In this document: positions 12,561 to 62,114 of the stretch, piece by piece
Numbering within the stretch: the first letter of the stretch is position 1
How the letters are laid out: each line of letters opens with the position of its first letter
Assembly (NCBI GenBank): GCA_963922205.1
Contig: CAWUHX010000086.1
Span: 806,001 to 870,000, forward strand
DNA: 64,000 nucleotides
Direction: 5' to 3'
Origin: Romanomermis culicivorax
Taxonomy: Eukaryota; Nematoda; Enoplea; Mermithida; Mermithidae
The notes under the pieces: model-generated
Database searches by the model: none
The model's input: the letters and a program-made list of their open reading frames with translations, nothing else
What the model was told of the DNA's origin: nothing
Made by a program: the position numbers and the translations under genes

Positions 12561-12692
12561 GTTTTTATATACGTTACAACACCTAAAATGATTCAAAATT
12601 TGAATGCATAATGTTTATTGCTTTTAGTTTAATGAACAGGCTGAATAAATTCCATTTTCTGCTTCAAAATTATGAATATGATTTGATTTTTT

Positions 12693-39000: not shown

Positions 39001-42000
39001 TTTCTTCTTCCGACATAGTTGGCTGATCTTTAACCAATGTTACTGGTTCATAGTCTTCTTCATGATCGCTTAGCGACGCGACGGTCATTTTCGATTCTTC
39101 GAGTTTGAATTTAACCTCAGCGATGAGCTGGTTGGGTTGCAGATGGATACCGTTCGCACTATTATTGACGAATAATAGTGGACATTTGCCTTCAGTTATG
39201 TTGATTATCGCAAGTTCGATCGGATATTCCCAGTTTTCTTTTCCGAAGTTCACTGGTTGAACTATAACGCTTTTGAAGCTTTCGTTTGTGAAAGGGAAGA
39301 CTTTCCCATTAACCCACGTTTGACAATTCGGTTCTACGTAGCATGACGAGATATTTAGAATCGGTAGCGATCTGTCGATTTTTACGATTTGCGCTTGACT
39401 TTGTCCCGTAGAAGTATTTGAAAATACTTCATCGTAGGGCGCTTTTTCGATCGGTTTCAAAACTAGATTTAGTTCTTGTTGAACGTCTCCGATTCTGATG
39501 AAATTTTCACCAAAGTTTATTACGGCTCGAACGCTTGGATGCACTAGGAAATCGGTTCCTAGGAGGCATTGCTCTCCTGTAGTAGGCAGTATCCAGCATC
39601 GTACTAGATGCGTTCCGAAAGATGAACTGATTTTGAAGATTATCGGACCTCGGGCATCGACGATAGCACCGTCGGCTACTTTTATCTGCGCGGATGTTTC
39701 TAACGTATCATAGTCAATCCCCAAAGAGGGTTGAGCTAGACATGAGGAAATGACTGAACACTGAGCACCAGTATCGATTAACGCTTTCGTTTTGATTTTT
39801 CCGATTTCGGCATCGATATGAAAAGCACGAGTAGGAGCGTATAAGCTCAGAAGTTTGATGTCTTTTTGTGAACATTCTTCGATTCGACACACGCTAGATC
39901 TCGCGATCCACGGTTCAGTAGGTTTTTCGATTGTGAAATCTGTGATTCCGGGAGCGACGAAGAAGTTTGTAGCTTTAGAAGCTTCTGTCGGTTCAAGCAT
40001 ATTAGCTGTACTAGTTGTCGGCTTCATCGGAACGAAAGGTTTAGGTGAGTTGGACACCGTTTTGGTTTCTGATGGCAAAACTTGTTGTGAAGATTTCGGA
40101 GAAGTTAGCTGAGTCTGTATAGACTGTGAGTTGTTCATCGGATAGTAGTAGTGCTTTTCGATTATCTTTTCTTGTCCGGATTCGGAATCGCAGAGAGAAA
40201 TGTTTGCAACATCTCTCTGATAGTTTCGATTATCGCGATTGAAAAATCGGTTATTTCGGTCAAAATTTTGATTCTGATTGAGCGTGTAGTTACGCGTATT
40301 TTGTTGATAACGAGGACGCCAATTATGGTTATTTTGCCATTGATGATTTGGTTGCTGTTGCCGAGGCTGAGAAGCCTGTGGTTTCAATTGATAGCATTCG
40401 GAGCTGTCGTGTTTACACTGACCAGGATAGGTGCAATACTTCACGGGTCGTTCAGGTGACTGATTTCGTTGGAAGTTTCGATTCTGAGAGAATCCCGTAT
40501 AGGAATGTTTTTCTCTATTCCGGAAATTCGGACTCGTCCCGCGATCGAATCGCGATCTTCGATTTTCGAAATTATTAGCGTTTTGCGTATTTTCTCGGAT
40601 TCCGAACTTTTCTAGGACTCGTTTCACGCTTTCCTCGAACTCTTTAGTCTTCATTAGAGTCGAATTTTCTTGAAATTGGACGGTATTTCGCTGTCTAGAG
40701 TCATCTCTATTTCGGGATTGAGAGTTATCTTGGAAACGAGGTTTCGAATCATCTCTGAAACGCGACTGAACTGGTTGCTGTTCCGACGGATTTTCGAGTG
40801 TATTAACCAGTATAGGTTGTTCTACTCTGACAGTTGACTGTTTATTCGCTCTTTGGATTTTCTGAACTTTCGCAACGGCTATAGCTAAGTCAGTGATCGT
40901 TTCTAGAGTACTCGCGTCAATCGAGACTCTGTAAATTTCAGGCATTTTCCAAAGAAAAGTTGTGATAACTTTTCTATGGCGATACTGAGCGCTTCTGTCA
41001 TAGTACAGTAAATGTACGTAGGTGCTGATTCGATTTAAGAAAGCTGACGGATCTTCGGTTTCAAAAGGAGCGATAAACTGGAGCTCGCATTGGAGCGTAT
41101 CTTGGTCACAATTCGGTGCATTCATACACATCAAAATCTGTTTCGCTTCATCGTAGGATCGGACATCTCTTATGGTGTTTAGAGCACCATCGCAAGTCAA
41201 GCGACGCAACGTGTGAAGTTTTACATACTCAGACGCATCAAGGCCGAACTCGTTTTCAAGTGCAATGAAGAATTTCAAAACTTGTTGATTTCGAGTCGAA
41301 TTATCTAGTTTTTGCGGCGCTATCTTTTTACAGATAGTCTTAATTCTCGTTTCGTCATCGGCGAAAGATCTATGCACCTGAGAAGGTGGGATAGATGGAA
41401 AGTTTATCTGAGAGTTTAGCGCGTTTAGCGCGTTAGAGCGGTCAAACGTTTGAGTCGGGGTGATTAGATCATCGTCGTTGTCGATTATACCACGAAAACT
41501 AAGTTGACTTTTTTGATCGCTAGTGACGTTTTTTGGTTTATTCGATTTCAGAGACTGAGCGTAAGAGCTCGTAGGTCTCGCGATATTTTCGATTTCAGGA
41601 ACATTCGGTTTCGTTAGCTCTTCTTTCTGAGCTCTCATCGCTTCGATTTCAGTTTTAAACTCATCAAGAAGTTTTCGTTGTTGAGTCGCGATAGTCACAA
41701 TTTCACTCAACGCGTTAGTAGCGTCGCCACGAAAATTTATCATTTCGGCATCACATTTTTGCATTACGTCGATATACGCGTCATTATCGAAGATTTTTCG
41801 AGTTTCGGTCTCTTTCGGTTTCGGTTTTAGAAAGTTGAATTTTCGATTTTCGACGATTTTCGGAGATAGAGATCGCGAAGTTTTTCGCATTTTTAGCGGA
41901 GCGGACGTTTCTGGTAGATCCAAATTATGCTTATCTGCTTCGTAGAGAAGCGGTAGATTCGCGTTTTCGCAGTCGAAATTTTCGATTTCTGGAGTAGCGG

Positions 42001-42145
42001 GATTCGCTAGTTTCTTATAGAAACCTTTCTCGTAACCGAGCGCAGTAGAGCGACGCGTGCGGTTTTTCTTCCATTTTTTGGATTTTCGATTTTTCGCAAA
42101 TTTTGGCGTTTCCTCAACCTTTAGACGAGCTGGTACGGTCACCAA
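36095..42145 (-). CDS. Element 1 Gag-Pol polyprotein
   Basis: A single frame of 2,016 codons. Gag: basic N-terminus, capsid-like helical region about residues 270-460, then an Arg/Asn/Gln-rich nucleocapsid with an unusual CX5CXHX4C knuckle near residue 600. Protease: IDTGAQ near residue 792 and LLGTDFL further on. Reverse transcriptase: YIDDI near 1258. RNase H: TDVS near 1408 and later TDHKPL. Integrase: HHCC zinc site near 1667, catalytic D (about 1726), D in SDQGSGF and E in VERFNQ (about 1820); GPF motif near 1958. No stop separates gag from pol. The frame opens at the primer-binding site; the first ATG is codon 86 (41890), so the true start is uncertain or spliced. All catalytic motifs are intact. 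Confidence 0.9.
42126..42144 (-). promoter_or_regulatory. Primer-binding site of element 1
   Basis: On the minus strand TGGTGACCGTACCAG follows directly on the LTR end CATAATT. TGG is the complement of a tRNA CCA end. I cannot name the tRNA. The site lies within the open gag frame. Confidence 0.55.
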
Positions 42146-43029: not shown

Positions 43030-43689
43030 GAATCAGGCGAGTTATGTTAACATTTACGATCAAAAGTAAGAAGGAAAAAAATAATGTGAAAAAGAACAAA
43101 AAACATAGAATCGAGAGAATAGAAACAGATAGAGATAAAAGAAGTAAATGCAAAGAACTAAAATGAAAAGTAGATAAGAATGAGAAAAAATCACACAGGA
43201 TAAAATTAAATAGGAAATAGAGATTGGCGAATTGTATAACAATTACATGGGAGACAATGCTTATTAAAATTGAGAACTTGTAGTGTATTTTTTCATGAGC
43301 AAAAAAGAGAAGAGTAGATGACAAGTACAAAGAAAATGAAAGGAAGCAGAGGCGAAAGATAAAAATGCAAAAACATACATGAACGAAAACATAATTGCAA
43401 CAGACAAATAAAAAAGAAATATATACAAAGAAAAATATAAGGTAAAGAAGGAAATTGTGAAGAAAATGTTATTGCATTCTCTATTCCTCGTTTGGTATCG
43501 CCCAATTGAGAATTCGCTCAATCGGGAATCACTTATGTGGGAATCGCTTAATTGAGAATTCGCTCACTTGGGAATTCACTCAATCGGGAATGGCTCACAT
43601 GGTAATCGGTCAATTGAGAATTCGCTCATCTGGGAATTCGCTCAATCGGAAACCGCTCATATGGGAATCGCTCACTTGGGAATAAACCG
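43030..43689. mobile_element. Foldback element FB4, right half
   Basis: An A-rich arm (about 43050-43480) followed by a minisatellite of GGGAATCGCTCA-type units (43490-43684) ending GGAATAAACCG, identical in layout to the right end of FB3. The left arm and array are absent. Confidence 0.65.
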
Positions 43690-45912: not shown

Positions 45913-45916
45913 CTTA

Positions 45917-47363
45917 TGTCACATTTTACGCCATGTCACGTGTATGACAGGTTTATCTTGGGAGAGCTGGAGAGGTTTGGGTATCTCATCAGGTAATACC
46001 GTGTTTTAGACGTCACATTGATGGTGAACCATATCAGATTGATCCTATTACAGTGAGTAATAGGCTGTGACTCCTGATGGATACTGGCATTTTCCCCAGG
46101 CTTCCCAAGTTGGCGTTGGGGGGCCTAACCTGGCAAATGGTGGCTATAGAGAGGTCTATAGTTGGTTCTCTTGTGTTGTCCTTGGGGTCTTGCTGTAGGG
46201 TAACGGACAACGCTGCCAGGCTAGGTGCGACAATCCCCGAGTCCTACTCAGTGAGAGTGGGGACAGGGTCACCCGTAAAATGACCTAAATTATGGGACCC
46301 GATTATGAACCAGGCAGCCCCTTTTAGCCCAAACCTGAGAGGTGGAGGCCCTACTTATCTGTGGAAACCTTGGGAAACCGACTTAGGAAGGATTTCCCAA
46401 CAAATAACCCACAAATAACAATAATCCCCTGAGAAGACTCACCTAGTCCTGTTTCTCAAGCGATTACGACGCAGCGGGCAGCAAGTCCCTGGATGCTTTC
46501 GGTCTTCTGGCACTGGGAGCAGGGGATGCGATCCTCAAACGTCCTAGGCCGCGAGCGGCGGCGAGCAGGAGGGAGCGGGAGCGAGCGGGAGGCGAAACTC
46601 CAACGTTTAATTCACGAACCGGGGCGGTCGGACACCTGGCACTGATAGGCAGCGGGGTACTGTAGGCGGTGAGCGGCGGACGCAGTAAGAAATGCAAGGG
46701 TATGCAAATTTATTTAAAATAATAGGCGGCGGACGCAATCGAGTATATAAAAATATGCAAATTGAGAAGGGCGGCGGACGCGAAGTGACAACCGGATGAA
46801 AGCTTGGTGAACCCAAGAATGAGCGAAAAACTAAAGAAACATGTCCTTTTAAGGACATGTTTGGCTACAGCTGCAGCTTGGGCGGAGTTTCTCGGCGCTC
46901 AAGCTAACTTCTGCAGCTAGACGCGATGCAGAAGATGCCTATGAGCACATAGACATTTTTTCATTCACATGCGTTTAGCACTGAGGCCGGCTGCAGTGCC
47001 TATGCTAAGCATACGAACGTCTTTAGCTAAAACTTCTTAGCTAGTCGTTTTGCGTAACAAAAACGACGCTAATTTTTGATGATAAGAGGTGCGTGAGCGC
47101 ACCAAAAATAGCCATGTGCTCGTGGAGCACGACTGGCGGAAGTTTTTAGCTAAAGGGCCTACTGTAGCCCGCGTTTGTAAAGAAATAAAAATACAACAAA
47201 ACGAAACATAGAAATGCATAAAAATATAAAAACGAACACAAAATGCATGTGTAAAAATGAAATAAACAAAAGCATGATCGAGTAATGAACGAAACATGAA
47301 AAATAACAAAATGTCGGCATGATCAGAATCACGTGACGTTGGAGAATTGAGCGGCACGTGACA
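45917..47363 (-). repeat. 3' LTR of element 2
   Basis: 1,447 bp. On either strand it begins TGTCAC and ends GTGACA. Contains an AATAAA on the minus strand at 46709-46714, a stem-loop at 46837-46862 (AAACATGTCCTT and its inverse) and short GC hairpins near 47088-47130. Short open frames inside it recur in the other LTR and are not genes. Confidence 0.95.
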
Positions 47364-48037
47364 CTGCGGTCCTTCGAAAAAGGGCGTCCTCGTCCTTGCG
47401 GTGGTCAGTAGTGAGGTTTTGCGTGGCGTGTCCGTGGTCGTAGGTCATTCCAAGGTGTGACGGCGAGAGTGGTCGAATAGGTCCGTTGGGTTGTCGGCGG
47501 ATGAAGCCTTCTTTGATCGTAATTCGTTCGGTGGTATGGTGACCGGAGGTTGTTGATGCGTGAAGTTGCCAACATTGAATATCCTGTGCGAAGGTCTGGA
47601 ACACAGAAAAGAAAAATTTTCAGGGCAAGATGTAGGCTATCGCAGAGGATGCGCCCAGTGAGGTACAGATTGTCGGGTTATCGCAGAGGATGCACCCAGT
47701 GAAGTGTAGGCTATCGTGTGAGGATGCGCCTAAGGCGTGACGCTTTGGTTGCTGAACATTCTCTTCTATCCACTAAGATCCAGCATGGACAAGAGTGGAT
47801 ACTTCGTGAGGGGCACGGCGGTCCTTCGAAAAAGGACGTCCTCGTCCGTAAGCGGGGACAATGAAGAGAATGCATCTTGAATTAAGGGTCGGGGACCTCT
47901 GCATCAAGATGTGGGTCAATCAAATTAGGTGTAAAGTCCCGGCTTATTGAAGGATACAACAAGGGGGCCGAATCCGTTGCCTGTGAAGTGGGAGGTGTAT
48001 CCTCTGCTTCACTCGGTAGTTCAGGGGACACGTAAAG
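47364..48037 (-). other. 3' untranslated region of element 2
   Basis: Non-coding. Holds three GAGGATGCGCCCAGTGA-like repeats (about 47640-47735). A block of about 35 bp containing the hairpin GTCCTT..AAGGAC occurs twice: beside the LTR (47366-47392) and near 47829-47853. No long polypurine tract adjoins the LTR; GAAGGACCGCAG is the immediate neighbour. Confidence 0.5.
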
Positions 48038-51000
48038 TCAAAGCTGGTTGACATGTACAGTGTCTTCCTGGTCCATCTCGAGACGAAGTGTGACATTTGG
48101 GTATGCCACACTTGTTACAAGGTAGGGCCCATCATAGATGGGCAGCAATTTAGGAGTGAGTCCACGTTTGCTGGAGGTGCGCAGTTTGAGCACCTGATCC
48201 CCTACTTTGTACGAGACATCATGTGCCCTCCGGTCGTACGACCGTGCATAGGCTTCCTGTGCTTTCTCAATCCGACTCTGGATTAAGGTTAACGCATTCG
48301 TGAAATGACGTTTGACCTCCATATCATATGAGGAAACATTAATGATATGGGCCGGAGGGTTGAATGAGAGCGCGGCATCAACAGGGAGCATGGGTGTGCG
48401 ACCGTACATGAGTTCAAAGGGCGAGTACCCTGTTGACTCATTCATGCTGATATTGACGGCAAACACAGCGTATGGTAGGTGTTCATCCCAATCGGTATGT
48501 CCTTGATAAACATACATACGTAGCCGTGTGGCTAGCGTCTGATTAGCTCTTTCCACTTCGCCGTTGGTCATCGGGTGATAGGCTGTAGAGTGGATTTTCT
48601 TCGTTGCGCAGATCGCAGTGATCTCAGTCATCAGTTTTGATGTGAAATCAGTGCCACGATCTGATTGAAGAATCTGCGGTGCCCCGTGCCGGCAGACAAT
48701 TTGCGTTACAAACAGCCGGGCTATGGTGTGTGCAGTGATGTCCGGAGTAGCAAAAGCCTCGACCCATTTCGTAAAGTAGTCGATAAAGACTACGATGAAA
48801 CGGTTGCCAGCTTCGCTAGTGGTCATTGGTCCCATGCAGTCTACACCTACCCCGTGAAACGGTCCCGTGATGGTGATAGGTTTCAGGGTCGCAGTGGTTT
48901 TCTGTCGAGCGGGCTTATTCCGTTGGCAAAGATCACACCGCTGACAGAAGGACTTGACATCCCGACTGAGGGAGGGCCAGTGGTATCTGCGAGCAATGAG
49001 CCGCGCAGTACGTTTAGCACCGAAGTGTCCAGCTAAGATGTCATCGTGATGAGCCCGGATAATGGTAGTAACCATGGATCTGGGTATGACGATCTTATTG
49101 GACTCGCCTGTCCATTTCTGAAGAACGTTATCCAACAGATGGTAGCCTCGCACATCATTCTGGTCGCCCAGAGGCTTAAGAGAGCGAATGATGTCGGCTA
49201 ACTCCGGATCCTCCAGCTGAGCAGCGAAAAGGTCGGGGTGCTGCGCACCGACGGATATCTCGGCATAAGACTCTGATCGTAGTGGGCGCTCCGCGCCAAC
49301 AGTGATCGGTGCTGAATTACTTGAACGCGCCAGGTGCTGCACACCATCGGTCAAGGTCCTTGATCTCGCCAGGTGCTGCGCACCATCGGTGATCATCATG
49401 ACATGCCCCTCAGGTCTGTAAAGGGGAGTATCATCAATACTCTGACCGGTGAGGGAGTTAGGATCCGGCAGGCATGATAATGCGTCAGCATTACCATTAG
49501 ACTGACCTTTTCGCGGCCGAATTGTCAGTTTGAATTCGGCGAGCGCGAGTCCCCACCGGGCGATCCGAGCAGAGGGGTTAGGCTTCTCCAACACTGCTTT
49601 GACCGCGGTATGGTCAGTCTGAACGACCACCTCGTGCTGGAAGAGGTATGGTCGAAAGTGCTTGACGAAATGGACAACAGCGAGAGTCTCCAGTTCTGTA
49701 ATGGAGTAGTTTTTCTCGGCCGCTGTTAACCCTCGGCTGGCGTACGCGACAGGATGGTCGTATCCATGTTCGTCTAACTGGCTAAGAACCGCTCCTATCC
49801 CCGAAATACTCACATCAGTTTGAAGGATAAAGGATTTCGAAAAGTCCGGATGGCGCAGGATAGGAGGGTTGGTCAGCAGGCGGCGGAGTTCATCGAACGC
49901 CTCCTGCTGAGGTTTTGACCACTGGAAAGTAGTTTCCTTCCGTAAGAGCTTGGTGAGTGGCTCGCTGAGCCGGGCACAACCAGGGATGAAACGCCTGTAG
50001 TAAGACACGAGGCCTAGGAAGGACTTGATGTCTTTGGCGTTTTGTGGAATGGGTAGGTTTTGGACGGCGGCCAGCTTGGCTTGGTCAGGTTCTAGGCCGC
50101 TCTGTGAGATGCGATAGCCTAGGTATTCTACCTCTGAGTGCGAGAATTTGCACTTGCTCAGTCTGAGCTTTATTCCACCCCGGCGAAGACGGGCGAACAC
50201 ATCTGCCAGGCGCTCAAGCATTTGGGTGTGAGAGTTCCCGAACACCAAAATGTCGTCGAGATAAGTCAGAACCGTGCGCCATTGGATTCCAGTAAGGAGG
50301 AGGTCCATAAGGCGTTGAAATGTCCCTGGCGCGTTGCATAAACCGAAAGGCGAGTAATTGAATTCGTAAAGTCCAATAGGCGTATTAAAAGCCGTCTTTT
50401 CCTTATCGGCCTCGGCAATCGGGATTGACCAATAAGCGTTAGCCTGGTCAAGGGTAGTGAAATATTTCATACCCTTGAGTGTGTCGAGAATGTCATCTAT
50501 CCGCGGGAGAGGGTAGACATCCTTTTTCGTGACCTCGTTAAGACCACGAAAGTCAACACACATACGGTGAGAACCGTTTTTCTTGCGCACCAGGACAGTA
50601 TTAGTAGCCCACGGAGACGTGCTCGGCCGAATAATACCTTTCTCCTGGAGCGCCTTGACCTCTTGCATGATGAGATCCTTTTCCTTAGGTGAGGACCGGT
50701 AAGGGAAACGGCGGACTGGGCGGGCATCGCCCGTGCTGATTTCGTGCTGGACGAGATCAGTGGAACCTGTGTCCTTTTCATCAAGAGCATAGAGGTCGGT
50801 GTATGCAACCAGCAGATCGAGTAAGGCTGCCCGGTCCCGAGGGGAGATGTCCGGTGAGATTACAGCGTTGGCCTCGACCCACTGACGATCGAGGACGATG
50901 TCTGAGTCGACTGGTGATTCCCGTGAGGGCTCACTATGCATCTGCACATGACCGATGGTCGTGTGCGGGTAGAGAACCACGGAATGAGTACTCGGGTTAA

Positions 51001-53173
51001 CTACCTGAAGTGGTATGTGACCGTTGGTCACGGTACTCACGCTTCCAGCAAAATATACGTGTCTTTGAGATCCGGTGAGGTGCTTCGGAAAGAAGGCCAC
51101 CTCAGGCACGTTCATATAGATTGGTGGAACAGGGACAGTGAATCGTGTCAGGGAGCGAGGCTCCAGAATTACCAAGTCCTTCAGGGGCAAGGCGCCGCGG
51201 GCAGAAGGTGGGCTGTGGATGAGACCGTCACAGGGGATTCTACTTTCCTTGAACTGGAGGAAGGATTTCTCCCAGTTCAAGCTGACACAATTGAACCGGC
51301 CAAGGAAGTTGGTTCCAAGGACCAGTTCGGCTGAACAGTTCTCCTGTATTTGGACCTGAATCCGTTCAGAGACATCAGCCACTGTAACCGTGATGTAGGC
51401 TGCTCCTAGCAGTGGGATCGGGGACCCATTGGCTGCGATAGGGCGTGCCCTGGTTGGTGATAGTGACAAGTTGGGCAGCTGGGCCGCTAACTTGTGGTCC
51501 AGGAGTGAGAAAACAGCTCCTGTGTCGACCAGTGCCTTCGCTTCTACCCAGTTGTTGAGGAGAACTTTGATATGGGGTGTCCAAATATCCTTTGGGTAAA
51601 AAGCAGTGGCCACATGACCGGAATCAGGTGTGGTGGCACCACAAGCGTGTTTGGTCTTACCGGACCGCTTTGGAATCGGCAGTCCCGTATGACGTAGAAG
51701 ACCTACTAGAGCATATCCGACGGAGGGTTCCGGGTCATTCAGAAGGGTGGACTCATCCTGCACCGTTAGTACGTGGTCTGAGTGATCCTTCGGACTCTGA
51801 GTAGCTCCTAGTGATTCAACCTCGGTGTCCGATAGCGGAGGCGCGTTTGGCACAGGTGATGTCGGAGCATCTGAATCACTTGGCTCACGGTATCGGCCCT
51901 TCTCTAGCGTAACTGGAGAGGTTCCAGGCGGAGGTCGAGGGCAACCTGACCCGTGCAAGGTCGACGGATGACGACTTGCCCGTCTAGAAGAGGCCCGGGA
52001 TCCCCTAGTTGACCCACGTGATGAGGCAACTGAGGAGGCCCGTGAGTGTGGCCGAGAGATGGACGAAGCCCTGGACCGCGATCGTGATCCCGACCTGTGT
52101 GAGTTTCGCGAGAGAGCACGGGTGTTCTCCCACCAGGGGTCGATCTGGTCAATCTCCGGCGTGGTCAGCATGAGGGGTAATTCTACCGCATCCAGCCTAC
52201 AAACATTACGTTGGTAGTCAAACATAATGTTCTTGAACTGTTCTAAGAAGTCCAGTCCGAGTATGAGGTCAACAGGTGCCCAGAAGGGAGACGTAGTCTT
52301 GCACACATGGAGATGTACATCGATCCGTGTGTTCGGCTGGCGGTTTCCGGGCAGCATGATTTCATATGGTCCCGAAAGGATGGTATGAACGGCTTTACCA
52401 TTGATGCTCATCAATGGGTTAAAGTCGTGATGTTGCTGGAACGCCATGACCGCCTTCGGACTTTCTTTAGCCAAGGCCTTATGAAGACGTTGGCTAATGA
52501 TAGTGCATGGGCAACCCGTGTCAAGGAAAGCAGGAGTTTCCTTGGTGTCCAGCAGCACGACGAAACACGGTGTGATTCCGTCAAGCTGGGAGGGCACATC
52601 GTTTTGCACGTAGTGAAAACCGATCCAGCGTTGGACTTTGCGGTAAAGACCCAATGGGGAGAAACGGCTAACAAACCTGACCTGTTTGCTCCGCAGACGG
52701 TAGCTGAGATAATAGGATACACCAAGATAGGCAAGGTATCCGGCACCGATCAGCACTGTCAGGGTAATTAGGATGTTAAAGATCAACTGGACCGGCCCGC
52801 TCAGGACAGCATGCAAGCCCTGGGCGAGGGTGTGTTGTTGACCCGTAATAACATGGTTTGCTGCCAAACCGACACCTTCCAGAGAGGCCTTGATGTCGGT
52901 TCCTACCCCTGCAAAGGCCTGGTAAGTGGCGTCTGGTTGCAGGGATAGACCAGCGGTAAAGTTTACCAGCCGGTTGAGTACCGCTTCAATTTGCTCAGTC
53001 TTGTAAACGTACTGTTTAAAGAAGGCAAAGTTTGAAGGGGTCATCGCCAACTGGTCATGGAAGAGCGCCGGTGCCTCAAAGTGAGTGATGTTGAAGCGCT
53101 GCTTCCAGAAGAGTTCCAGTGGGATGTGGCTCACATGGACCGCGCCAGACTCAGTAAACCAGCCCGAGCGATT
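48038..53173 (-). CDS. Element 2 Env C-terminus, two retropepsins, RT, RNase H, integrase
   Basis: Open for 1,711 codons after the TGA at 53174. There is no ATG until 53044, which shows it continues the upstream frame. Numbering from the GTG at 53134: Env stem with N-glycosylation sites, a helical region, and a transmembrane helix at about 115-145 followed by basic residues; protease 1 with LDTGCP at 204-209 and ILGLDFL at 291-297; an Arg/Ser-rich linker about 340-390; protease 2 with VDTGA at 536-540 and LVLGTNFL at 604-611; RT with YLDD near 956; RNase H from about 1105; integrase HHCC about 1370-1400 and DDE near 1431, 1493 and 1525. Catalytic residues look intact. Two complete retropepsins in one polyprotein is exceptional. 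Confidence 0.88.
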   Translation of the reverse strand, partial: NRSGWFTESGAVHVSHIPLELFWKQRFNITHFEAPALFHDQLAMTPSNFAFFKQYVYKTEQIEAVLNRLVNFTAGLSLQPDATYQAFAGVGTDIKASLEGVGLAANHVITGQQHTLAQGLHAVLSGPVQLIFNILITLTVLIGAGYLAYLGVSYYLSYRLRSKQVRFVSRFSPLGLYRKVQRWIGFHYVQNDVPSQLDGITPCFVVLLDTKETPAFLDTGCPCTIISQRLHKALAKESPKAVMAFQQHHDFNPLMSINGKAVHTILSGPYEIMLPGNRQPNTRIDVHLHVCKTTSPFWAPVDLILGLDFLEQFKNIMFDYQRNVCRLDAVELPLMLTTPEIDQIDPWWENTRALSRNSHRSGSRSRSRASSISRPHSRASSVASSRGSTRGSRASSRRASRHPSTLHGSGCPRPPPGTSPVTLEKGRYREPSDSDAPTSPVPNAPPLSDTEVESLGATQSPKDHSDHVLTVQDESTLLNDPEPSVGYALVGLLRHTGLPIPKRSGKTKHACGATTPDSGHVATAFYPKDIWTPHIKVLLNNWVEAKALVDTGAVFSLLDHKLAAQLPNLSLSPTRARPIAANGSPIPLLGAAYITVTVADVSERIQVQIQENCSAELVLGTNFLGRFNCVSLNWEKSFLQFKESRIPCDGLIHSPPSARGALPLKDLVILEPRSLTRFTVPVPPIYMNVPEVAFFPKHLTGSQRHVYFAGSVSTVTNGHIPLQVVNPSTHSVVLYPHTTIGHVQMHSEPSRESPVDSDIVLDRQWVEANAVISPDISPRDRAALLDLLVAYTDLYALDEKDTGSTDLVQHEISTGDARPVRRFPYRSSPKEKDLIMQEVKALQEKGIIRPSTSPWATNTVLVRKKNGSHRMCVDFRGLNEVTKKDVYPLPRIDDILDTLKGMKYFTTLDQANAYWSIPIAEADKEKTAFNTPIGLYEFNYSPFGLCNAPGTFQRLMDLLLTGIQWRTVLTYLDDILVFGNSHTQMLERLADVFARLRRGGIKLRLSKCKFSHSEVEYLGYRISQSGLEPDQAKLAAVQNLPIPQNAKDIKSFLGLVSYYRRFIPGCARLSEPLTKLLRKETTFQWSKPQQEAFDELRRLLTNPPILRHPDFSKSFILQTDVSISGIGAVLSQLDEHGYDHPVAYASRGLTAAEKNYSITELETLAVVHFVKHFRPYLFQHEVVVQTDHTAVKAVLEKPNPSARIARWGLALAEFKLTIRPRKGQSNGNADALSCLPDPNSLTGQSIDDTPLYRPEGHVMMITDGAQHLARSRTLTDGVQHLARSSNSAPITVGAERPLRSESYAEISVGAQHPDLFAAQLEDPELADIIRSLKPLGDQNDVRGYHLLDNVLQKWTGESNKIVIPRSMVTTIIRAHHDDILAGHFGAKRTARLIARRYHWPSLSRDVKSFCQRCDLCQRNKPARQKTTATLKPITITGPFHGVGVDCMGPMTTSEAGNRFIVVFIDYFTKWVEAFATPDITAHTIARLFVTQIVCRHGAPQILQSDRGTDFTSKLMTEITAICATKKIHSTAYHPMTNGEVERANQTLATRLRMYVYQGHTDWDEHLPYAVFAVNISMNESTGYSPFELMYGRTPMLPVDAALSFNPPAHIINVSSYDMEVKRHFTNALTLIQSRIEKAQEAYARSYDRRAHDVSYKVGDQVLKLRTSSKRGLTPKLLPIYDGPYLVTSVAYPNVTLRLEMDQEDTVHVNQL

Positions 53174-54481
53174 TCAGAAAATCCCTGTAAAGTGGTGATG
53201 ACACGGCACTATTGGGCTAGATTTAATGAGATCCGGACCACCGGGGGTGGCGAAGTAGATGGTGCCGCCAACCTGTACAGGTAAGTACTTGTAGCAAACG
53301 TTCCCCACCCGGTACGAGTGGTAAACGTAGGTGGCGTTGACCTTCTGACACGGCCATATTGTCAGCGCATCGCCTGTGAATTCCGCCGTCAGGTCATTCC
53401 TTTGGAGGAATGCCCGGGCACCCAGGGTAGGGTCGAAGCGAAGCAACTGCCAAGTCAGATCAAGATAGCGTTGAGCGTGAGAGCAGAGCTCAAGCCACGT
53501 GAACCGGAAACCGTTAATTTCCGACTCCTTGATCTGCTGAGCCAGATAGTTCAGTTTGGCATTGACAGGATTGGGACGGCTGTCCGTTGCCATTCTGAAC
53601 AAGTTTTGGGTCAAATTGTATCTCCCGTGGATGCGAAGGAGAAGACCCTGATCCGTCCGGACTGTGGTGGAACGTAGTTCTGGGCACAGTTGGAAGACGC
53701 GGGAGTTTCCCGGGATCTTAAGGGCAACCTGCAGATCATCGATGATGACGTGGTTCCCTGACATGAACGCAGTGTAATTTCCCTTGGGGTGATAATGACA
53801 CCGCGCCGTGAAGTTTTGTGCAGGCCAGACAATGACCCCGTCTAGAGTAGTGCACTGGCCTGCAGTGGGGCTGCATCCACCTACATCGCCTAAAGTGCCG
53901 TCCCACGAAGCGACTTGTCCCTCCTCGATGAAGAGGTTAGTCACTGTCTTGCAGACATCGCTGCAGCACCATTCGTACATCACTTCCAATGTTTGGTTTG
54001 TGCTATAAAAGCCAGGGCGAACGCCGACAAGTTTTTGTGAACCAAACATCTTAGTGCGATGTGCTAGCGTGCATGCCGCAGGCGCTAAGTGCTGAGTGGT
54101 GATGACGTCTGCAGTGATGCCCCTAGAGCCGAAGAAACCAGTGTTGGTGCAGACTTTGCGGGAGCGCAATGTGCATTTCCACGCTGTGGCTGTAATCGGG
54201 TCTGAGCTAGGGACATACACCGTAACATTCATGCGCCGCGGGCTCCATGAAGATTGCGGTGGTTTACACTCTACACGCTGGGGTAACTCAAGTAGATGTC
54301 CGCTTCTTGAGAGACCGCAAAATTGATACTGAGCCGCCGGTGCTGACAAACTCACCCCTAGAAACAGTGATGCTACCAAGGTCAATTTTATTGTCAAAAA
54401 CAACTGTACAAACGTAATTTCTAAGTGTTCACTCAATTTCACAAATCTGGCCTGAGGGGCAGTGTCAGATTTCTTCTTCAT
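52690..54481 (-). other. Env-type membrane glycoprotein region
   Basis: Domain-level entry for the Env part across the TGA. It runs from the ATG at 54481, which overlaps the stop of the alternative-frame ORF, to the transmembrane helix ending near 52700. It has a signal peptide, at least 15 cysteines, several glycosylation sequons, a helical stem and one membrane anchor. This is the build of a type I viral fusion glycoprotein. The Cys spacing and FFGS motif vaguely recall glycoproteins shared by chuvirus-like viruses and some animal retroelements, but I cannot assign the class. No furin-like cleavage site is obvious. Confidence 0.65.
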
Positions 54482-56983
54482 CGCTGTCGGACGAGATTGG
54501 TTCCTGGCCGGGGAAATCGAGGACCAATCCACCGCACGGGTGGATTTCCCGGAGGATACCGATTTTTGGCGACCGTGGGGCGACTGCCGTTGGGAACGGG
54601 GATTCCTCAACGATGCTGACATCTTCGTTAACCGGACGTAAGGTCTCGTCGACGGCCATGTGTTCGACGACGGGCGACTTGGTCGCAGCGGTCGGAGATG
54701 TCGTTTGGGCTGGTGCCGGCGATTTAACCTGGGCTGTTGCCGACGGTGTAGGATCATTTGCGGGTTCCTTGGCCGGGGGCGAGGAAGCAGTAATGTCCAT
54801 TTTCGTTGGCGATGTCGCGGCAACAGGTGGCGCTGCTGCCGGTGATGTAGCGGCGGCAGCAGGCAGGAGGATCCGACTGGCCTGTTCGACTGCTCGGCGG
54901 ACGGCATCGACTGAAGGCGAGGATGGCTCCCCGTCCAATAAGAACTTCTCGACGGGCGAGATGGTGATAGTCCCATTGGCAATGAACTCGAGTGCCCGTC
55001 GGGCGACGTCGGGTCGTAAGAGGCGCATTGAGACGGGTGCTGCAAGCACGACGTCAGCGGCCGTGAGCGCTTCGACATTCGATGGCTCGTTGAGCAGAGT
55101 CCACGGCAAATGCGGGTATTTCTTGGCCAGGTCGACTGACCAGATGGCCAACATCGCGTCTTGGACGGGCGATGGCGCTGTGAACAAGAAATCGATAGAG
55201 TCGTGGACTGAGATAGATTTCTGGTTCCTACTCTAGGATCACCTGAAGGAGAAGGTAGTATACCTGACAAATTCATGGGCTCGACCTGGTCGAGGACATC
55301 CGTAGCCGAATCCGTGGGGATCGAAGGCGGTGGTCCTGGAGGGACGATGCGGGCCGGTGGCGCCGAAGACGTCGTATTGGCGGCTGGAGTTGGCTCGGCA
55401 GTCTTAATTTTAGGAATGCGATACGATGCGAGGATGTTAGCGTGGCCAACAAACTGCGGTGTCGTCGAGGGGTCCAGAGTGACCGGCATCGCATACTTTG
55501 GTGGTGGTGGTGGCAGCGGTATGTCCGATACGTTTATCGGTAAGGGTACCTGGGCTGCTTGGACCACTGAAAATCCGATACTGATTACGCAGACAGGATA
55601 ACACTGTTGTGAAGAATCTGTCAGGTGTTCAGCAAGTGCCTCATCATCCAGGTCAAGGGGATCTGGATGAGGAGGGCCATCGGTAGCCCCAACGGCGTTG
55701 TTGCGGCGTATGGGCTGCCGATATTGGTTTCCTATCCCGTTGGGAGGGTGATAACCATTTCTTTGATGATACACATTTGTCCCCTGGGAAGAATAACCAG
55801 TATCTTGGTAGACATTCTCACCCGTGTTTGCCGGATTGCGCTGCGGACAGGCAGTTGATCGGTGCACTCGCACTTGACGACAATGAGGGCATGGCCTATC
55901 ACATCGGTCCGTGGGGTGGGCACGTGTACGGCAAAAATAACAGCGACCACCGTTAGCGGCGTTGTTACCGGGAGGGGTACCGGTGGGATGCTGGGCCCGG
56001 CAGTCGGCGTCGCTATGTGTACACAGTCCGTGGAAGGAGCACGTTTGAAGGTGTGCTCCCGACGAGCGTCGCCCGGCGGACTGATTTGGTGTCGACGGCT
56101 GTGGAGGCAGCGTCTGTTGGATTGGCGCGGGTGCACGTTGCTGGGCCGTGAGCTTCGCTACGTGGGCCATGAGCCTGGCCATTTCCTGTTTCAAGCGGCG
56201 AACCTCATCGGCGGAGGATGACGACGTTGGAGCGTTGCTCTGACGACCGTTTGCGCTTCTGTTAGGCATATCGGGATTATATCCGGCGTGTTTAGGTTCT
56301 GAAGAGAAAACGGCGTTAGATGGAGCAGTGTACCGGATCTCGTCCCGAAAGATTTGGGATTCTGCGTAACAGGCTGCCTTGAGTGTCTCTTCAAGAGTCG
56401 TGAACTCCCTAAACTTGATACTATCCCGGAGGACCGGCTTCAGTCCTCGCAGAAAGATAGGTTTGATGATAGAATCTCGGACATCCGTCGCGAGATCTGG
56501 ATACGCTACCCTGGATAGTCTCTTGAGGTGCTCAAGGTAGACTATCGCGGACTCTGTCGGCTTCTGCAGTCGATCTTGGATCAGCTGCTGATGCAGATCA
56601 GAGTCACGCCCTACCGGAAAATCTCTCCGTAGAAAAGCCGTAAACTCTTCGTAGCGGGTAGGTATTGGAGTGCTGCTGCTAAGGTCCCGGTAGGAGGCGA
56701 GAGCAGGACCCGTGAGGCATGACTCCAGAAAGGCGATTTTATACGCATGATCCGTTTCGCTTACACCCTGGAGTGTAAAGAAACGAGTAAGATGCGACAT
56801 AAAATCGGTGATAGACTCACCAAAAGCACCAGAGAAGGTGGGAGGGGCCATAAAGCTGGACACAGGAGGGTGCCTCCGACCATTCATGGCCTCTAACTTT
56901 TGGTTGAGGGGTCCAAGAGCATTCTCAAATGCTGCCTGGACTTTGTTCTCGATCTGTGAAGGGAGATCAGCTTCCGACTTCAT
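53174..56983 (-). CDS. Element 2 Gag and Env ectodomain frame
   Basis: Begins at ATG 56983; 1,269 codons to TGA 53174-53176. Residues about 1-240 are a capsid-like Gag. Three zinc knuckles follow: a CX5CXHX4C motif near 317, then CX2CX4HX4C and CX2CX5HX4C near 350-375. A Pro-rich region ends about residue 584. Residues 585-834 are low-complexity Ser/Pro/Arg and overlap a better-looking ORF in another frame, so this stretch may be incidental. At residue 835 (ATG 54481-54479) an Env-like protein starts: short charged leader, hydrophobic signal peptide, then a Cys-rich ectodomain with several N-X-T sites and an FFGS motif. Env may initiate at its own ATG or be made as a Gag-Env fusion. Confidence 0.85.
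54465..55154 (-). CDS. Overlapping accessory ORF in a second frame
   Basis: In the frame shifted by -1 relative to gag, the sequence is open from 55232 to TGA 54465-54467; the first ATG is at 55154 (229 codons). The first 90 or so residues look like a folded domain with Trp, Leu and Pro. An Ala/Pro/Ser/Thr-rich linker follows, then an acidic tail ending in Asp/Ser/Glu repeats. The composition is more protein-like than the gag frame over the same bases. Its stop overlaps the Env ATG, a layout typical of coupled or bicistronic expression. It could be a frameshift extension of Gag or a separate accessory protein. Family unknown. Confidence 0.55.
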
Positions 56984-59900
56984 GTCCGAGGGTTCGTTTT
57001 CCCCGTAAGGTGGTTAGAACAGACGTCCTTGCCCGTGAAGCAATTAAGTCAAATTGAATAGAGAGCGGCTCACTGGTCTGTACAGGCTGGGTACTGAGAC
57101 GGCAGGAACGACGGGGTGTCTCTATTGTGTAAAATGAAGGTGAGTACTACTTTGAATTCGCGGCGAAAGAGCGTGTGAATTCGGGAAACGCGTGCGCGAC
57201 GGCGTTTGTGAGGTAAACTTGATTTAGCTTAAGACTAGCGACCACGAAAAGGGAGCTAGAATGGAATAGGGTTATAAGATGTAAGATCAGAGTACATCAG
57301 GGTGACGCAGAAGGGAATTTATCTGGTTGCCCGTGATGGACAGAGGCATGGCCTGAGATATGGGGGAATCGATCCCGACCAAAAATGTAGAATTGGGGCC
57401 TGGACCCGGCAATTAGAATAGATGAAGAGGACAGAAGATCAGGTATAAAAAGGAGAGAAGAGGCGGTTTTCCTGCCGAGAAATAAGATGACGGATAAACC
57501 CGCTCAGGAGGGATTTTTCCTGGAGGTTCGACCGCTGTACTAGTTTACAAATCTTGGGGCGAGGCGGACTCGTAGCCGGCAAGATCCTACTCACCAGGAG
57601 TAGCGCATAAAGTGGCATAAGGTGAAAAGGACGGGGTCAACTGAAAATGAACGTAAGAGGGAGCAATAAATAGGGACAAAACTAATTTACAAACCCAGTT
57701 ACGCAAAGGGGTCGCGCAGTTACGCAACGGGCCTCACTCGCCAGGAGCGATTGCGATCTCTGCATAGTGAGACGGACTATACAGGAGGTTCCGTGTTGGA
57801 CGACATTCGCAAGTAACTTACAGCCGTGTCCGAAACGGGAGCCCGCATTCCGAACAGAACGGACACTCTCCAGGAGTATTATATACAGCTGGTGGCCGGG
57901 TTTGCCGATCACTGAGATGAAGTGAGGTTCGCAGGTCACACAGTAGAGGAGGGAAGGAGCACGGGTACCAAGGGTGCTATTCTGACACACTCAGTCAGTT
58001 AAAATGAAATACTCTGGATGTTTTGAGGGCGCACCCGAAAACATCTAAGGGATCACGGGTACAAGGTGTCCCTGGTTGAATATGAGTGTAAATTAACTGG
58101 GGCGGACGCAGTTATGTATCGAGGCGTACTCAATACCCTCACTGAGGCGGACTCAATGGTGCCTATTATTTACATGACTAACAGGGGGTGGACCGCGGAG
58201 GCGGACTCTGGGTCAGTGGCGACTCTAGCGCGGGCATCGTTAAGCCAGTTAACGAAGGCGTTCGAGTGAGTGGAATATGACAGGGGGTCCTATACACTCT
58301 AGGCCCAACCGGAGGCTGTGCCGCGGTCCCTTGGGAACCACTACGGCGGGGACACTAAAGAAGATCTATGTATGACAGCTCGATGAGATGAAAGAGAATG
58401 AGTGAATTTAGATAAGAAATTTACAAGAAGATTGCCGAACCCTTGCAGACGTCAGACACAGGCAGTACCGACTGCAAATGCCTACCATCTACACGAGTCA
58501 AGCAACCAACCCAGCTGAGGCCGAGTGTAACTCGTTCAAACCTGCAGTTAAAGCTTGAAAACAGCCACGTGCTGATCAACAGTGCCGCTACCCGGGCGGA
58601 CAACCTGATCAGCACGCAGGCTAGTGAGCATCTCGGGTGGTGTATGTATGTGGACTGATGTTTCCCAGGCATCAGCCCCCAGACACACACAAAACCCTTG
58701 GACAAGAGAGGTAGGTGATAGGACCATGCGCCAGCGACCACCTACAACTCAAGTGGAATACTCATAGGGCCGACAGTAACCTGGTGCGGACGTCAAAAGG
58801 TAGGGGTATGAACCAACGCATGACCTTGGTGCTGACTGCAGGTGCCTGGGATAAGAGTATCCAAGTATCATATCGCAGTTGCAGACGCCAGGGGGAAGTG
58901 CCTAAGGCCAGCAAACCCCTGCAGTAGCACGTAATGTTACCGTTGCAGACGTCAGAAATAGGATCATGTAACCTCAGTTCCTGCTGCGAGAACATGATAC
59001 ATTGTCATTGCTGACGTCAGCAATAGGGCCCTGAAGCCAGCTATCGGTATACAGCAACACGTGATGGTGCCGTTGCTGACGCCAGAAGGTGGAACCGAGG
59101 GTCTGATACCTTGAGTCAATGACATGAGATGCAGTTGTTGCAGACGTCAGATGTGGCACCCGTAAGACCTGCACATCTTCGAATAGTGACACGGTGCGTC
59201 ACCGTTGCTGACGTCACAGATGGGGTGCAGAGAACCAGCCGAACCTGTTGCAACAACGTTGGCTTCACCTGTTGCAGACGTCAGAAGTCATTACTGCTGG
59301 AGTGTTAACTTAAACAACAACACGTAATGTCGGTTGCTGACGTCAGGAGTAGAACCCGGAGGGCTACCCACCCCTTGAAGCAACAGCAAGTGAAGCGGCT
59401 GTTGCAGACGTCAGTGGTTGCATCCGTGGGGTTGAACCACACAACAACAACAACCCGTAACGTTGTCGTTGCTGACGTCAAAGAGCATGACCCGTAAAGT
59501 CTATGTTCAAGATGCAACAACCGGAAAGTAGAAGAAGCAGACCTTACAGTAAGTAGAAATGAAGAAGATAGACGAACTTACGCAAGGGTGTCATACTGTA
59601 GCGGTGGCATCCGGAAAACAGAAAAAAAATTTTTTTTTTTTTTTTTTTTTTTTGACACCGCTCAGATGACCGAGAAAGGAAAGGGGAAAGGAAGTAACCG
59701 AAGACGGGAACACGAGAGTTGGACATACGCGTGTTAAATGTGTAAATAGTCGGTGTAAAATTTTGGTGCCGGAAAAGTGAGCGATTCCGACAGTTTCCCC
59801 CGACAGACAAAAATTACTGTACACAATTAACAAATCGCAGCCACGTATGACGTCCAGAATCATACGTGGAGGGTGTACGGTATCATGGGGTCACGGACCA

Positions 59901-60635
59901 CCAACAGTCAGGAGAGGCCGTAAACCCCTACAGCTGTGATACCAGTACCCGCGTATGGGTATACTGTAGTTACAGTAGGGGAATGGTCACAGGCGTACTG
60001 TAATGGCACCCACCCGGAGGGCTACAGTATACCACCCAGGATTAAAGAAGGGGGGGATAGGAGAAAAGAAACAGATAAGGGAGTTTACAACACAGATTAA
60101 GTATGCGGAATGTACAGAATAACTCAGAGGAGAAATACAGAATACTCGATATATAACTCACCTCTGGGACAAATAACACGACTCTGGGGATAAATAACTC
60201 GACTCAGGGGGAATTTATTACTCATAGGGGATAATACACACGCATGAGATAATTATTTACACATATAGATCACATTTAGATCACTCGTAAGGGCAAATCC
60301 CGTCTTACAGTAATTAAATTTGATGTTCAGGGATAAATTCCCGACCTACAGTAATAACTCTCGGTGGCACGGGAAAAATTTTCCGACTTACAGTAATAAT
60401 ACGCGACGTGAGGTGGGGGTATCCGACCTACAGTAGCGGTAATCCGAAATAAGGGACATTCCCGACCCATTAGGCAGTAAACCCGAATTTGGGGGGTCTC
60501 CGACTTATTGGATGGCTAGTGCCCAATTTTAAGGGGGCTTGTCCGACTTAAAATGGGAGTTGACCCGACCTGGGGGTAGTTCCGACCCAAGGGTGAAGAT
60601 TTTTGCACTTAAGGGCGAGTGCCAGACTTAAGGTC
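56984..60635 (-). other. Long non-coding leader of element 2
   Basis: 3.65 kb between the primer-binding site and gag with no supported ORF. It is compositionally unlike the rest: repeated GAGGCGGACTC motifs around 57555-58210, a CRE-like array at 58440-59490, a T24 run at 59630-59653, and degenerate 60-bp repeats with CTTACAGTAATAA around 60310-60430. The length suggests splicing or structured-RNA functions. Confidence 0.55.
58440..59490. repeat. Array of CRE-like motifs in the leader
   Basis: About twelve occurrences of GTTGCAGACGTCAG or GTTGCTGACGTCAG (some GACGCCAG), spaced roughly 60-75 bp from about 58780 onward. Several contain a perfect TGACGTCA, the consensus for CREB/ATF-type bZIP factors. 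The bases between motifs vary more, indicating degenerate tandem duplication with selection or homogenisation of the core. Confidence 0.65.
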
Positions 60636-60653
60636 GATTTTCCAGCCTCGCCA
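60636..60653 (-). promoter_or_regulatory. Primer-binding site of element 2
   Basis: On the minus strand TGGCGAGGCTGGAAAATC follows directly after the GTGACA end of the 5' LTR. TGG complements a tRNA CCA end, and the complement reads CCAGCCTCGCCA. I cannot name the tRNA with confidence. Confidence 0.65.
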
Positions 60654-62110
60654 TGTCACATTTTACGCCATGTCACGTGTATGACAGGTTTATCTTGGGA
60701 GAGCTGGAGAGGTTTGGGTATCTCATCAGGTAATACCGTGTTTTAGACGTCACATTGATGGTGAACCATATCAGATTGATCCTATTACAGTGAGTAATAG
60801 GCTGTGACTCCTGATGGATACTGGCATTTTCCCCAGGCTTCCCAAGTTGGCGTTGGGGGGCCTAACCTGGCAAATGGTGGCTATAGAGAGGTCTATAGTT
60901 GGTTCTCTTGTGTTGTCCTTGGGGTCTTGCTGTAGGGTAACGGACAACGCTGCCAGGCTAGGTGCGACAATCCCCGAGTCCTACTCAGTGAGAGTGGGGA
61001 CAGGGTCACCCGTAAAATGACCTAAATTATGGGACCCGATTATGAACCAGGCAGCCCCTTTTAGCCCAAACCTGAGAGGTGGAGGCCCTACTTATCTGTG
61101 GAAACCTTGGGAAACCGACTTAGGAAGGATTTCCCAACAAATAACCCACAAATAACAATAATCCCCTGAGAAGACTCACCTAGTCCTGTTTCTCAAGCGA
61201 TTACGACGCAGCGGGCGGCAAGTCCCTGGATGCTTTCGGTCTTCTGGCACTGGGAGCGGGGGATGCGATCCTCAAACGTCCTAGGCCGCGAGCGGCGGCG
61301 AGCGGCGGCGAGCGGGAGGGAGCGGGAGCGAGCGGGAGGCGAAACTCCAACGTTTAATTCACGAACCGGGGCGGTCGGACACCTGGCACTGATGGGCAGC
61401 GGGGTACTGTAGGCGGTGAGCGGCGGACGCAGTAAGAAATGCAAGGGTATGCAAATTTATTTAAAATAATAGGCGGCGGACGCAATCGAGTATATAAAAA
61501 TATGCAAATTGAGAAGGGCGGCGGACGCGAAGTGACAACCGGACGAAAGCTTGGTGAACCCAAGAATGAGCGAAAAACTAAAGAAACATGTCCTTTTAAG
61601 GACATGTTTGGCTACAGCTGCAGCTTGGGCGGAGTTTCTCGGCGCTCAAGCTAACTTCTGCAGCTAGACGCGATGCAGAAGATGCCTATGAGCACATAGA
61701 CATTTTTTCATTCACATGCTTTTAGCACTGAGGCCGGCTGCAGTGCCTATGCTAAGCATACGAACGTCTTTAGCTAAAACTTCTTAGCTAGTCGTTTTGC
61801 GTAACAAAAACGACGCTAATTTTTGATGATAAGAGGTGCGTGAGCGCACCAAAAATAGCCATGTGCTCGTGGAGCACGACTGGCGGAAGTTTTTAGCTAA
61901 AGGGCCTACTGTAGCCCGCGTTTGTAAAGAAATAAAAATACAACAAAACGAAACATAGAAATGCATAAAAATATAAAAACGAACACAAAATGCATGTGTA
62001 AAAATGAAATAAACAAAAGCATGATCGAGTAATGAACGAAACATGAAAAATAACAAAATGTCGGCATGATCGGAATCACGTGACGTTGGAGAATTGAGCG
62101 GCACGTGACA
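60654..62110 (-). repeat. 5' LTR of element 2
   Basis: 1,457 bp, TGTCAC...GTGACA. It differs from the 3' LTR by seven substitutions and by one extra 10-bp unit in the GCGGCGAGCG array near 61290-61310. It contains the promoter of the element; I cannot place the transcription start. Confidence 0.95.
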
Positions 62111-62114
62111 CTTA

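What the first reader, a model, noticed from the sequence alone, without database searches (positions are those of the whole stretch)
48038..56983. Env located between Gag and Pol in one reading frame
Seen: one frame (2,982 codons, one internal TGA) encodes capsid and zinc knuckles, then signal peptide, Cys-rich glycosylated ectodomain and transmembrane helix, then protease, RT, RNase H and integrase. Known: retroviruses and env-bearing Ty3/gypsy or Bel/Pao elements place env after pol, usually expressed from a spliced RNA. Inference: this lineage inserted or moved env upstream of the protease. Pol would then be synthesised as a cytoplasmic extension of a membrane glycoprotein, or Env and Pol would be released from a Gag-Env-Pol precursor.
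Basis: partly seen in the sequence, partly recalled or inferred. Interest (0 to 1): 0.92.

Follow-up and report, generated by a model that had tools for sequence, protein, structure and literature searches.

The report
Gypsy-type element with Env before Pol
A young, multi-copy LTR retroelement carries a virus-like membrane-fusion glycoprotein between its capsid and enzyme genes in one reading frame, whereas described relatives carry it after the enzymes, so its particle would have to be built in an unusual way.

Summary
A Ty3/gypsy-type LTR element (45917-62110, minus strand; LTRs 98.9% identical, 4-bp target duplication) has the order Gag, Env, protease, RT, RNase H, integrase. The order belongs to the family: 61 of 109 RT-selected and 53 of 97 Env-selected copies (best-scoring, window included) keep one open frame of at least 3,084 codons. 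The TGA is not the family state: 58 of 60 other copies have a sense codon there, 1 a stop, 1 not found. Two distant relatives share parts of the order: Env-protease-RT-RNase H, and Gag-Env. Env matches the Monjiviricetes fusion family and, weakly, herpesvirus gB.

There, selection follows another frame, a Gag C-terminal exon; a 56-nt GT-AG segment, kept in 41 of 41 rows, would join it to Gag if spliced. Best model: spliced RNA makes Gag; unspliced RNA makes Gag-linker-Env-Pol, with Pol as cytoplasmic extension of the glycoprotein. Splicing and polyprotein synthesis are inferred. Both structure predictions failed.

The parts
60654..62110 (-). 5' LTR, 1457 nt, TG...CA
   Evidence: 98.9% identical to the 3' LTR over 1460 aligned columns, 6 mismatches, 2 gap openings; ends read
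45917..47363 (-). 3' LTR, 1447 nt
62111..62114 (.). target-site duplication TAAG, left copy
   Evidence: read
45913..45916 (.). target-site duplication TAAG, right copy
   Evidence: read
60636..60653 (-). putative primer binding site directly after the 5' LTR, begins TGG; tRNA not identified
   Evidence: read; tRNA match not tested
55264..56983 (-). Gag, first part (capsid-like domain, CCHC knuckles), frame 0
   Evidence: Ty3_capsid E 8.9e-06, below cut-off; unique changes 88 syn / 74 non, w~0.38; its C-part w~0.48
55208..55263 (-). candidate 56-nt intron, GTATAC...CAG; its removal moves Gag from frame 0 to frame 2
   Evidence: same length and GT/AG ends in 41 of 41 rows, window included; more A+T than flanks in the window, 58% vs 40%; splicing not observed
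54465..55207 (-). Gag C-terminal exon in frame 2, acidic end, stop at 54465-54467
   Evidence: w~0.25-0.33 in this frame; 16 of 149 scored copies have a stop inside
54482..55207 (-). same DNA in frame 0: linker joining Gag to Env in unspliced RNA; amino acids not conserved, frame mostly open
   Evidence: open in 37 of 41 rows of the second set; stop-making changes 4.1 vs 8.8 expected, ratio 0.47; P 0.067-0.097
54344..54424 (-). signal-peptide-like hydrophobic stretch of Env
   Evidence: hydropathy
53177..54343 (-). Env ectodomain, part before the stop; central fusion-domain match
   Evidence: PF24664 E 1.7e-12; 40% and 32% identity to P0004 and P0005
53174..53176 (-). in-frame TGA inside env of this copy
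   Evidence: 58 of 60 other copies sense, 1 stop, 1 not found
52787..53173 (-). Env membrane-proximal stem
   Evidence: aligned to P0004 and P0005, which have no stop there; stem+TM w~0.46
52685..52786 (-). Env transmembrane segment
   Evidence: hydropathy
52166..52588 (-). first retropepsin-like domain (PR1, DTG), approximate ends; no counterpart seen in P0004
   Evidence: blastp to PR2 E 0.002 and to P0004 protease E 2e-05; w~0.16; not significant in Pfam alone
51959..52105 (-). Ser/Arg-rich linker between the two proteases (approximate ends)
   Evidence: read; linker region w~0.28
51254..51586 (-). second retropepsin domain (PR2, DTG)
   Evidence: PF13975 E 1.6e-09; w~0.12
50108..50590 (-). 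reverse transcriptase
   Evidence: PF00078 E 8.7e-34
49532..49921 (-). RNase H
   Evidence: PF17917/PF17919
48572..49087 (-). integrase (H2C2 and core)
   Evidence: PF17921 E 9.9e-22, PF00665 E 2.4e-08; a GPY-like motif near the C-terminus read by eye

Best explanation
A recently active Ty3/gypsy-type retroelement with the order Gag-Env-Pol. Shown: the order, its presence in many copies and (in parts) in two distant relatives, selection on Gag, Env and protease, and a switch of the selected frame around a conserved GT-AG segment. Inferred: (1) spliced RNA, 56 nt removed, makes Gag with its frame-2 C-terminal exon and then terminates. (2) Unspliced RNA, which is also the genome, is read straight on in frame 0 through a meaningless linker into Env and Pol, giving a Gag-Env-Pol polyprotein of about 3,000 residues or more. 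(3) The Env signal and transmembrane segments thread it twice through the membrane, leaving Gag and Pol on the cytoplasmic side and the glycoprotein outside. (4) The tandem proteases then release Pol, so Pol reaches the particle as a tail of the glycoprotein, and Env becomes the fusion protein of an enveloped particle.
For: Open frame of 3,084 codons or more in 53 of 97 Env-selected and 61 of 109 RT-selected copies. P0004: one natural ORF with Env, TM, protease, RT, RNase H; P0005: one natural ORF with Gag and Env, similar to the window in both. P0005 has no Met between its zinc knuckle and its Env signal. The ATG at 54481 is ACG in 58 of 60 other copies. Selection by frame: gag frame 0 w~0.38, overlap frame 2 w~0.26, env frame 0 w~0.14 (anchor L010); second set 0.48, 0.33, 0.48. 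GTATAC...CAG of 56 nt in 41 of 41 rows; a frame-2 stop inside it is changed in only 1 of 58 rows, so frame 2 is not simply read across it. Frame-0 stop ratio in the overlap 0.47, against 0.24-0.62 in coding frames and 0.74-0.86 in non-coding registers. Probability of an open frame 0 there by codon choice alone 4e-5, 4e-4 or 1e-2, by the codon usage assumed. Precedent for a small facultative gag intron making Gag-only RNA: BARE1 (PMC3735527, passages).
Against: No RNA or protein data. The stop depletion is only suggestive (4 seen, about 8 expected, P 0.067-0.097). 24 rows listed (214 matches, 150 candidates scored, list cut) carry a frame-0 stop in the linker, against 16 of 149 for frame 2. Within the candidate intron only 6 of 18 unique changes are silent in frame 0 and 3 in frame 2, so it shows no clear coding constraint. 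An in-frame ATG 66 codons before the signal core is kept in 60 of 60 measured rows, so Env-Pol could start on its own. No copy lacking the 56 nt showed among the rows, nor as a fused Gag frame of about 830 codons. Acceptor-like sites that would splice env out in frame exist. Both Env models are unusable (pLDDT 41.9 and 31.4).
Confidence: 0.5

Rival explanations
1. Env-Pol is a separate polyprotein. Gag is made from one RNA and Env-Pol starts at its own ATG (66 codons before the signal core) on a spliced or otherwise distinct RNA. The open frame 0 across the Gag exon is then incidental.
For: ATG kept in 60 of 60 measured rows; linker amino acids not conserved, w~1.6-2.8; some linker stops tolerated.
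Against: The same bases are constrained by frame 2, so their conservation is not independent; P0005 has no Met between zinc knuckle and Env signal; frame-0 stop depletion.
Confidence: 0.27
2. Env is the alternative part: RNA spliced from the gag donor (55263) to an acceptor before PR2 makes an ordinary Gag-Pol without Env, and the unspliced RNA supplies Env.
For: Acceptor-like sites in frame with that donor, for example ending at 52030 and 51913 (found in 16 and 19 of 19 copies).
Against: Such sites are common by chance (expectation not computed); the 3 internal deletions read have other ends.
Confidence: 0.12
3. The Gag frame switch is made by ribosomal frameshifting near 55208, not by splicing.
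For: Selection switches frame there; frameshifting at gag-pol is common in retroelements (recalled).
Against: No canonical slippery heptamer seen by eye near the switch; GT-AG ends and length kept in 41 of 41 rows.
Confidence: 0.1
4. A one-off insertion of an env-like sequence into this copy, or an assembly artefact.
For: Only that the window copy is broken by a TGA.
Against: 97 Env and 109 RT matches at 97-100% identity, just over half of each in a frame of 3,084 codons or more; two distant natural proteins share parts of the order.
Confidence: 0.01

Closest known systems
Env-bearing Metaviridae (errantiviruses, gypsy)
   Same: LTRs, TG...CA, 4-bp duplication, Gag capsid-like domain, pol order PR-RT-RH-IN, viral envelope gene
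   Different: ICTV states that Env is encoded downstream of the integrase (PMC7879559, passages); here it precedes protease and shares the frame
Anakin BEL/Pao elements of mosquitoes with chuvirus glycoprotein
   Same: Glycoprotein related to negative-strand RNA virus (Jingchuvirales) G inside an LTR element (PMC7642597, passages)
   Different: Pao backbone; here pol looks Ty3/gypsy-type (no tree built). I did not see where the glycoprotein lies in Anakin. A 2023 survey states no clear evidence of such capture by Gypsy (PMC10084718, passages)
BARE1 and EVD (plant Ty1/copia)
   Same: Facultative intron in gag: spliced RNA gives Gag, unspliced gives Gag-Pol (PMC3735527 and PMC8892269, passages). 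BARE1 donor CAG/GTAT as here
   Different: No Env mentioned in those passages; in BARE1 the splice makes an early stop, here it would join a long conserved Gag exon that overprints the Gag-to-Env linker
TelKA elements of bdelloid rotifers
   Same: LTR element with a fusion glycoprotein from a negative-strand RNA virus (paramyxovirus F) (PMC5408684, passages)
   Different: Glycoprotein is an ORF3, described as downstream of pol

Membership tests
Metaviridae / Ty3-gypsy | LTRs TG...CA with short target duplication | tested here: met
Metaviridae / Ty3-gypsy | pol order protease-RT-RNase H-integrase | tested here: met
Metaviridae / Ty3-gypsy | GPF/Y motif in integrase | tested here: met
   GPY-like motif read by eye in the translation; hallmark status from PMC12440569 (one section)
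Metaviridae / Ty3-gypsy | RT phylogeny inside the clade | not tested
   no tree built
Metaviridae / Ty3-gypsy | Ty3-like capsid | tested here: inconclusive
   25.7 bits against curated 29.1; gag similarity to P0005 E 3.7e-12
Env-bearing Metaviridae (errantivirus plan) | Env downstream of integrase | tested here: not met
   Env precedes protease
Monjiviricetes fusion glycoprotein | match to the family profile above its cut-off | tested here: met
   PF24664 46.5 bits, cut-off 27
Class III fusion protein fold | gB/VSV-G-like fold | tested here: inconclusive
   profile search of PDB sequences: top three are an ORF8 (9cu4, a gB by recollection) and two chains named gB, E 0.0023, 0.0048, 0.064; models pLDDT 41.9 and 31.4
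Gag intron elements (BARE1/EVD mechanism) | spliced RNA encoding Gag only | not testable with these tools
   no RNA data; candidate intron only
Anakin BEL/Pao | Pao-type RT | not tested
   no tree; the GPY-like motif and Pfam hits point to the Ty3/gypsy side

The most novel reading that the evidence does not exclude
A retroelement lineage that makes Gag, Env and Pol as one membrane-spanning polyprotein, so that Pol is packaged as the cytoplasmic tail of the fusion glycoprotein, and sets the Gag to Gag-Env-Pol ratio by retaining or removing a 56-nt intron whose downstream exon overprints the Gag-Env linker.
Probability: 0.42. Interest if true: 0.92.

Novelty: new variant of a known kind. Interest (0 to 1): 0.82.

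Why it matters
Env downstream of integrase is the stated plan of env-bearing Metaviridae. A lineage with Gag-Env-Pol in one frame shows that an envelope can sit inside the polyprotein itself, and makes testable whether Pol can be packaged through a membrane anchor. It would also be a Ty3/gypsy-type capture of a Monjiviricetes-type glycoprotein, for which PMC10084718 reports no clear evidence. Many near-identical copies in one genome, just over half of those scored with the long frame open, make RNA and protein tests practical.

Tried and rejected
Structure: two AlphaFold jobs (and 95/103) gave pLDDT 41.9 and 31.4; no fold search was run on them. More relatives: an alignment search of proteins found none at E 0.001, a P0004 search found only itself, three scans of viral contigs and one of genome contigs found no relative. 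RT comparison with L001-L008 printed no match. TGA as programmed readthrough between ORFs: rejected, it lies inside env and 58 of 60 other copies have a sense codon. ATG at 54481 as Env start: rejected, kept in 2 of 60 other copies. Host not identified: the COX1 search did not complete. The PF24664 search of the host genome did not complete.

Sampling. L009-L028 were picked, 17 of 20 for long frames, so their frame-0 stop counts are biased. L029-L068 were taken in list order, leaving out those already fetched and one row skipped by oversight; that list is ranked by frame-2 similarity, so its frame-2 figure leans low. Copies dropped: L028 (gag deletion); one search lost 3 of 61 rows (L028, L031, L059); one search used 39 (gag), 41 (overlap), 40 (env) and 41 (intron) of 41 rows.

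Full report
What was checked. The finding describes one minus-strand frame, 48038-56983. Searches confirm 2,982 codons with one TGA at 53174-53176. I treated the two sides of that stop as separate proteins. Pfam finds a capsid domain (below its curated cut-off), a Monjiviricetes fusion glycoprotein match above cut-off, then protease, RT, RNase H and integrase. The element is bounded by LTRs 62110-60654 and 47363-45917, 98.9% identical, with a TAAG duplication. It is therefore a young Ty3/gypsy-type insertion of about 16.2 kb in an unnamed 359-Mb genome.

The order is a family trait. A search of the host genome with the Env part scored 97 copies (window included) at 97-100% identity; 53 lie in an open frame of 3,084 codons or more. 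A search with the RT part scored 109, of which 61 do. Both lists are the best-scoring copies only, so total numbers are unknown. The window's TGA is not the family state: at that place 58 of 60 other fetched copies have a sense codon, one has a stop and one was not found. The window's frame also ends 52 codons earlier than in three of three copies read at that end. Three copies suspected of missing sequence were read: C17, C116 and C137. Each has a deletion with different ends inside an otherwise env-bearing element; a fourth suspect, C82, was not read. I take these as decay, not env-less ancestors.

Relatives elsewhere. Of 5,137 candidates two proteins scored. P0004 (1,424 aa, JGI) is one natural ORF with Env, TM, one protease, RT and RNase H; its pol is 48% identical to the window's over 723 residues and its Env 40% over 401. 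P0005 (1,186 aa, ENA) is one natural ORF with Gag and Env, similar to the window in both. What follows P0005 on its contig could not be fetched. No further relative was found.

What the Env is. PF24664 scores 46.5 bits on the window part alone, cut-off 27. A profile of the three Env sequences searched against PDB sequences puts ORF8 of 9cu4 (a herpesvirus gB by my recollection) and two gB chains on top, E 0.0023, 0.0048 and 0.064: suggestive of class III, not proof.

Within the frame, residues ~574-834 read like nonsense. Comparing unique changes among 20 rows with L010 as anchor, gag part one is selected in frame 0 (88 synonymous, 74 not), the stretch 55206-54465 in frame 2 (88 synonymous, 50 not, 2 stops), and env in frame 0 (72 synonymous, 21 not, 1 stop). 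In the second set of 40 copies the figures are weaker but point the same way: w~0.48, 0.33 and 0.48. Between the two gag parts lies a 56-nt segment, 55263-55208, that begins GTATAC, ends CAG and has the same length in 41 of 41 rows. A frame-2 stop inside it is changed in only 1 of 58 rows. Unique changes silent in frame 0 / frame 2 number 38 / 18 of 83 before it, 6 / 3 of 18 inside it and 4 / 11 of 22 just after it. Removing it joins Gag frame 0 to frame 2 exactly. I infer an intron; no RNA was seen.

How frame 0 fares across the overprinted exon. Its amino acids are not conserved, but it is open in 37 of 41 rows of the second set, and in 54 of 60 rows over both sets (19 of these were mostly picked for long frames). 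Stop-making changes in the second set are 4.1 against 8.8 expected, ratio 0.47, compared with 0.24-0.62 in coding frames and 0.74-0.86 in unused registers. A stricter null gives P 0.067-0.097. Codon choice alone would leave it open with probability 4e-5 to 1e-2. Against this, 24 listed rows have a linker stop (150 candidates scored), more than the 16 of 149 for frame 2. I read this as a frame kept open with moderate force.

Where Env starts. The window's ATG at 54481 is ACG in 58 of 60 other copies and ATG in 2. An in-frame ATG 66 codons before the signal core is present in 60 of 60 rows, but frame 2 also constrains it. P0005 has no Met between its zinc knuckle and its Env signal. Gag-linker-Env-Pol from unspliced RNA therefore fits best, with separate Env-Pol initiation as the main rival.

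Pol begins oddly. After the TM come two retropepsin-like domains, both under strong selection (w~0.16 and 0.12 among 21 rows), separated by a Ser/Arg-rich linker; P0004 shows only one. They should lie on the cytoplasmic side and are placed to free Pol from the glycoprotein (inference).

Known background. ICTV places Env downstream of integrase in Metaviridae (PMC7879559, passages). Chuvirus glycoprotein capture is described for Pao elements (PMC7642597, passages), and a 2023 survey states no clear evidence for Gypsy (PMC10084718, abstract, one section and passages). Facultative gag introns are known in plant copia elements (PMC3735527 and PMC8892269, passages). Paper searches on envelope position and glycoprotein capture listed none that, by title and start of abstract, describes an Env between Gag and Pol; they cover open-licence papers only and I did not open most of those listed.

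Verdict. The anatomy is secure (about 0.95). That Env and Pol are made as one chain I hold at about 0.8, and the spliced/unspliced division at 0.5.

Noticed in passing
36095-42145 (-): A second Ty3/gypsy-type element with a single 2,016-aa frame and no Env match in Pfam; many RT hits in the genome have open frames near 2,011 aa.
   Followed up: partly
31419-35153 (-): Three ORFs of 321, 414 and 412 aa on the same strand without significant Pfam match, possibly extra genes of a mobile element.
   Followed up: partly
48038-48040 (-): The window's Pol frame stops here, 52 codons before the stop in the three other copies read at that end.
   Followed up: yes
58500-59500 (-): The 3.6-kb leader between 5' LTR and gag carries many repeats around TGACGTC, resembling CRE-type sites (read; family D3).
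   Followed up: no
47376-47405 and about 47825-47860: A stretch just before the 3' LTR is duplicated some 450 nt upstream (read; partial matches also).
   Followed up: no
60654-60680: The LTR end contains an internal GTGACATGGCG copy that mimics the LTR/PBS junction (read).
   Followed up: no
L070 (C17:1938500-1939600): Three RT hits about 12.18 kb apart in C17 suggest tandem copies; the one read has a deletion from gag into env.
   Followed up: partly
10436-13202, 19836-19985, 43498-43683: Tandem arrays of a 15-16-nt unit like ATTCCCAATTGAGCGA in several places and both orientations.
   Followed up: no
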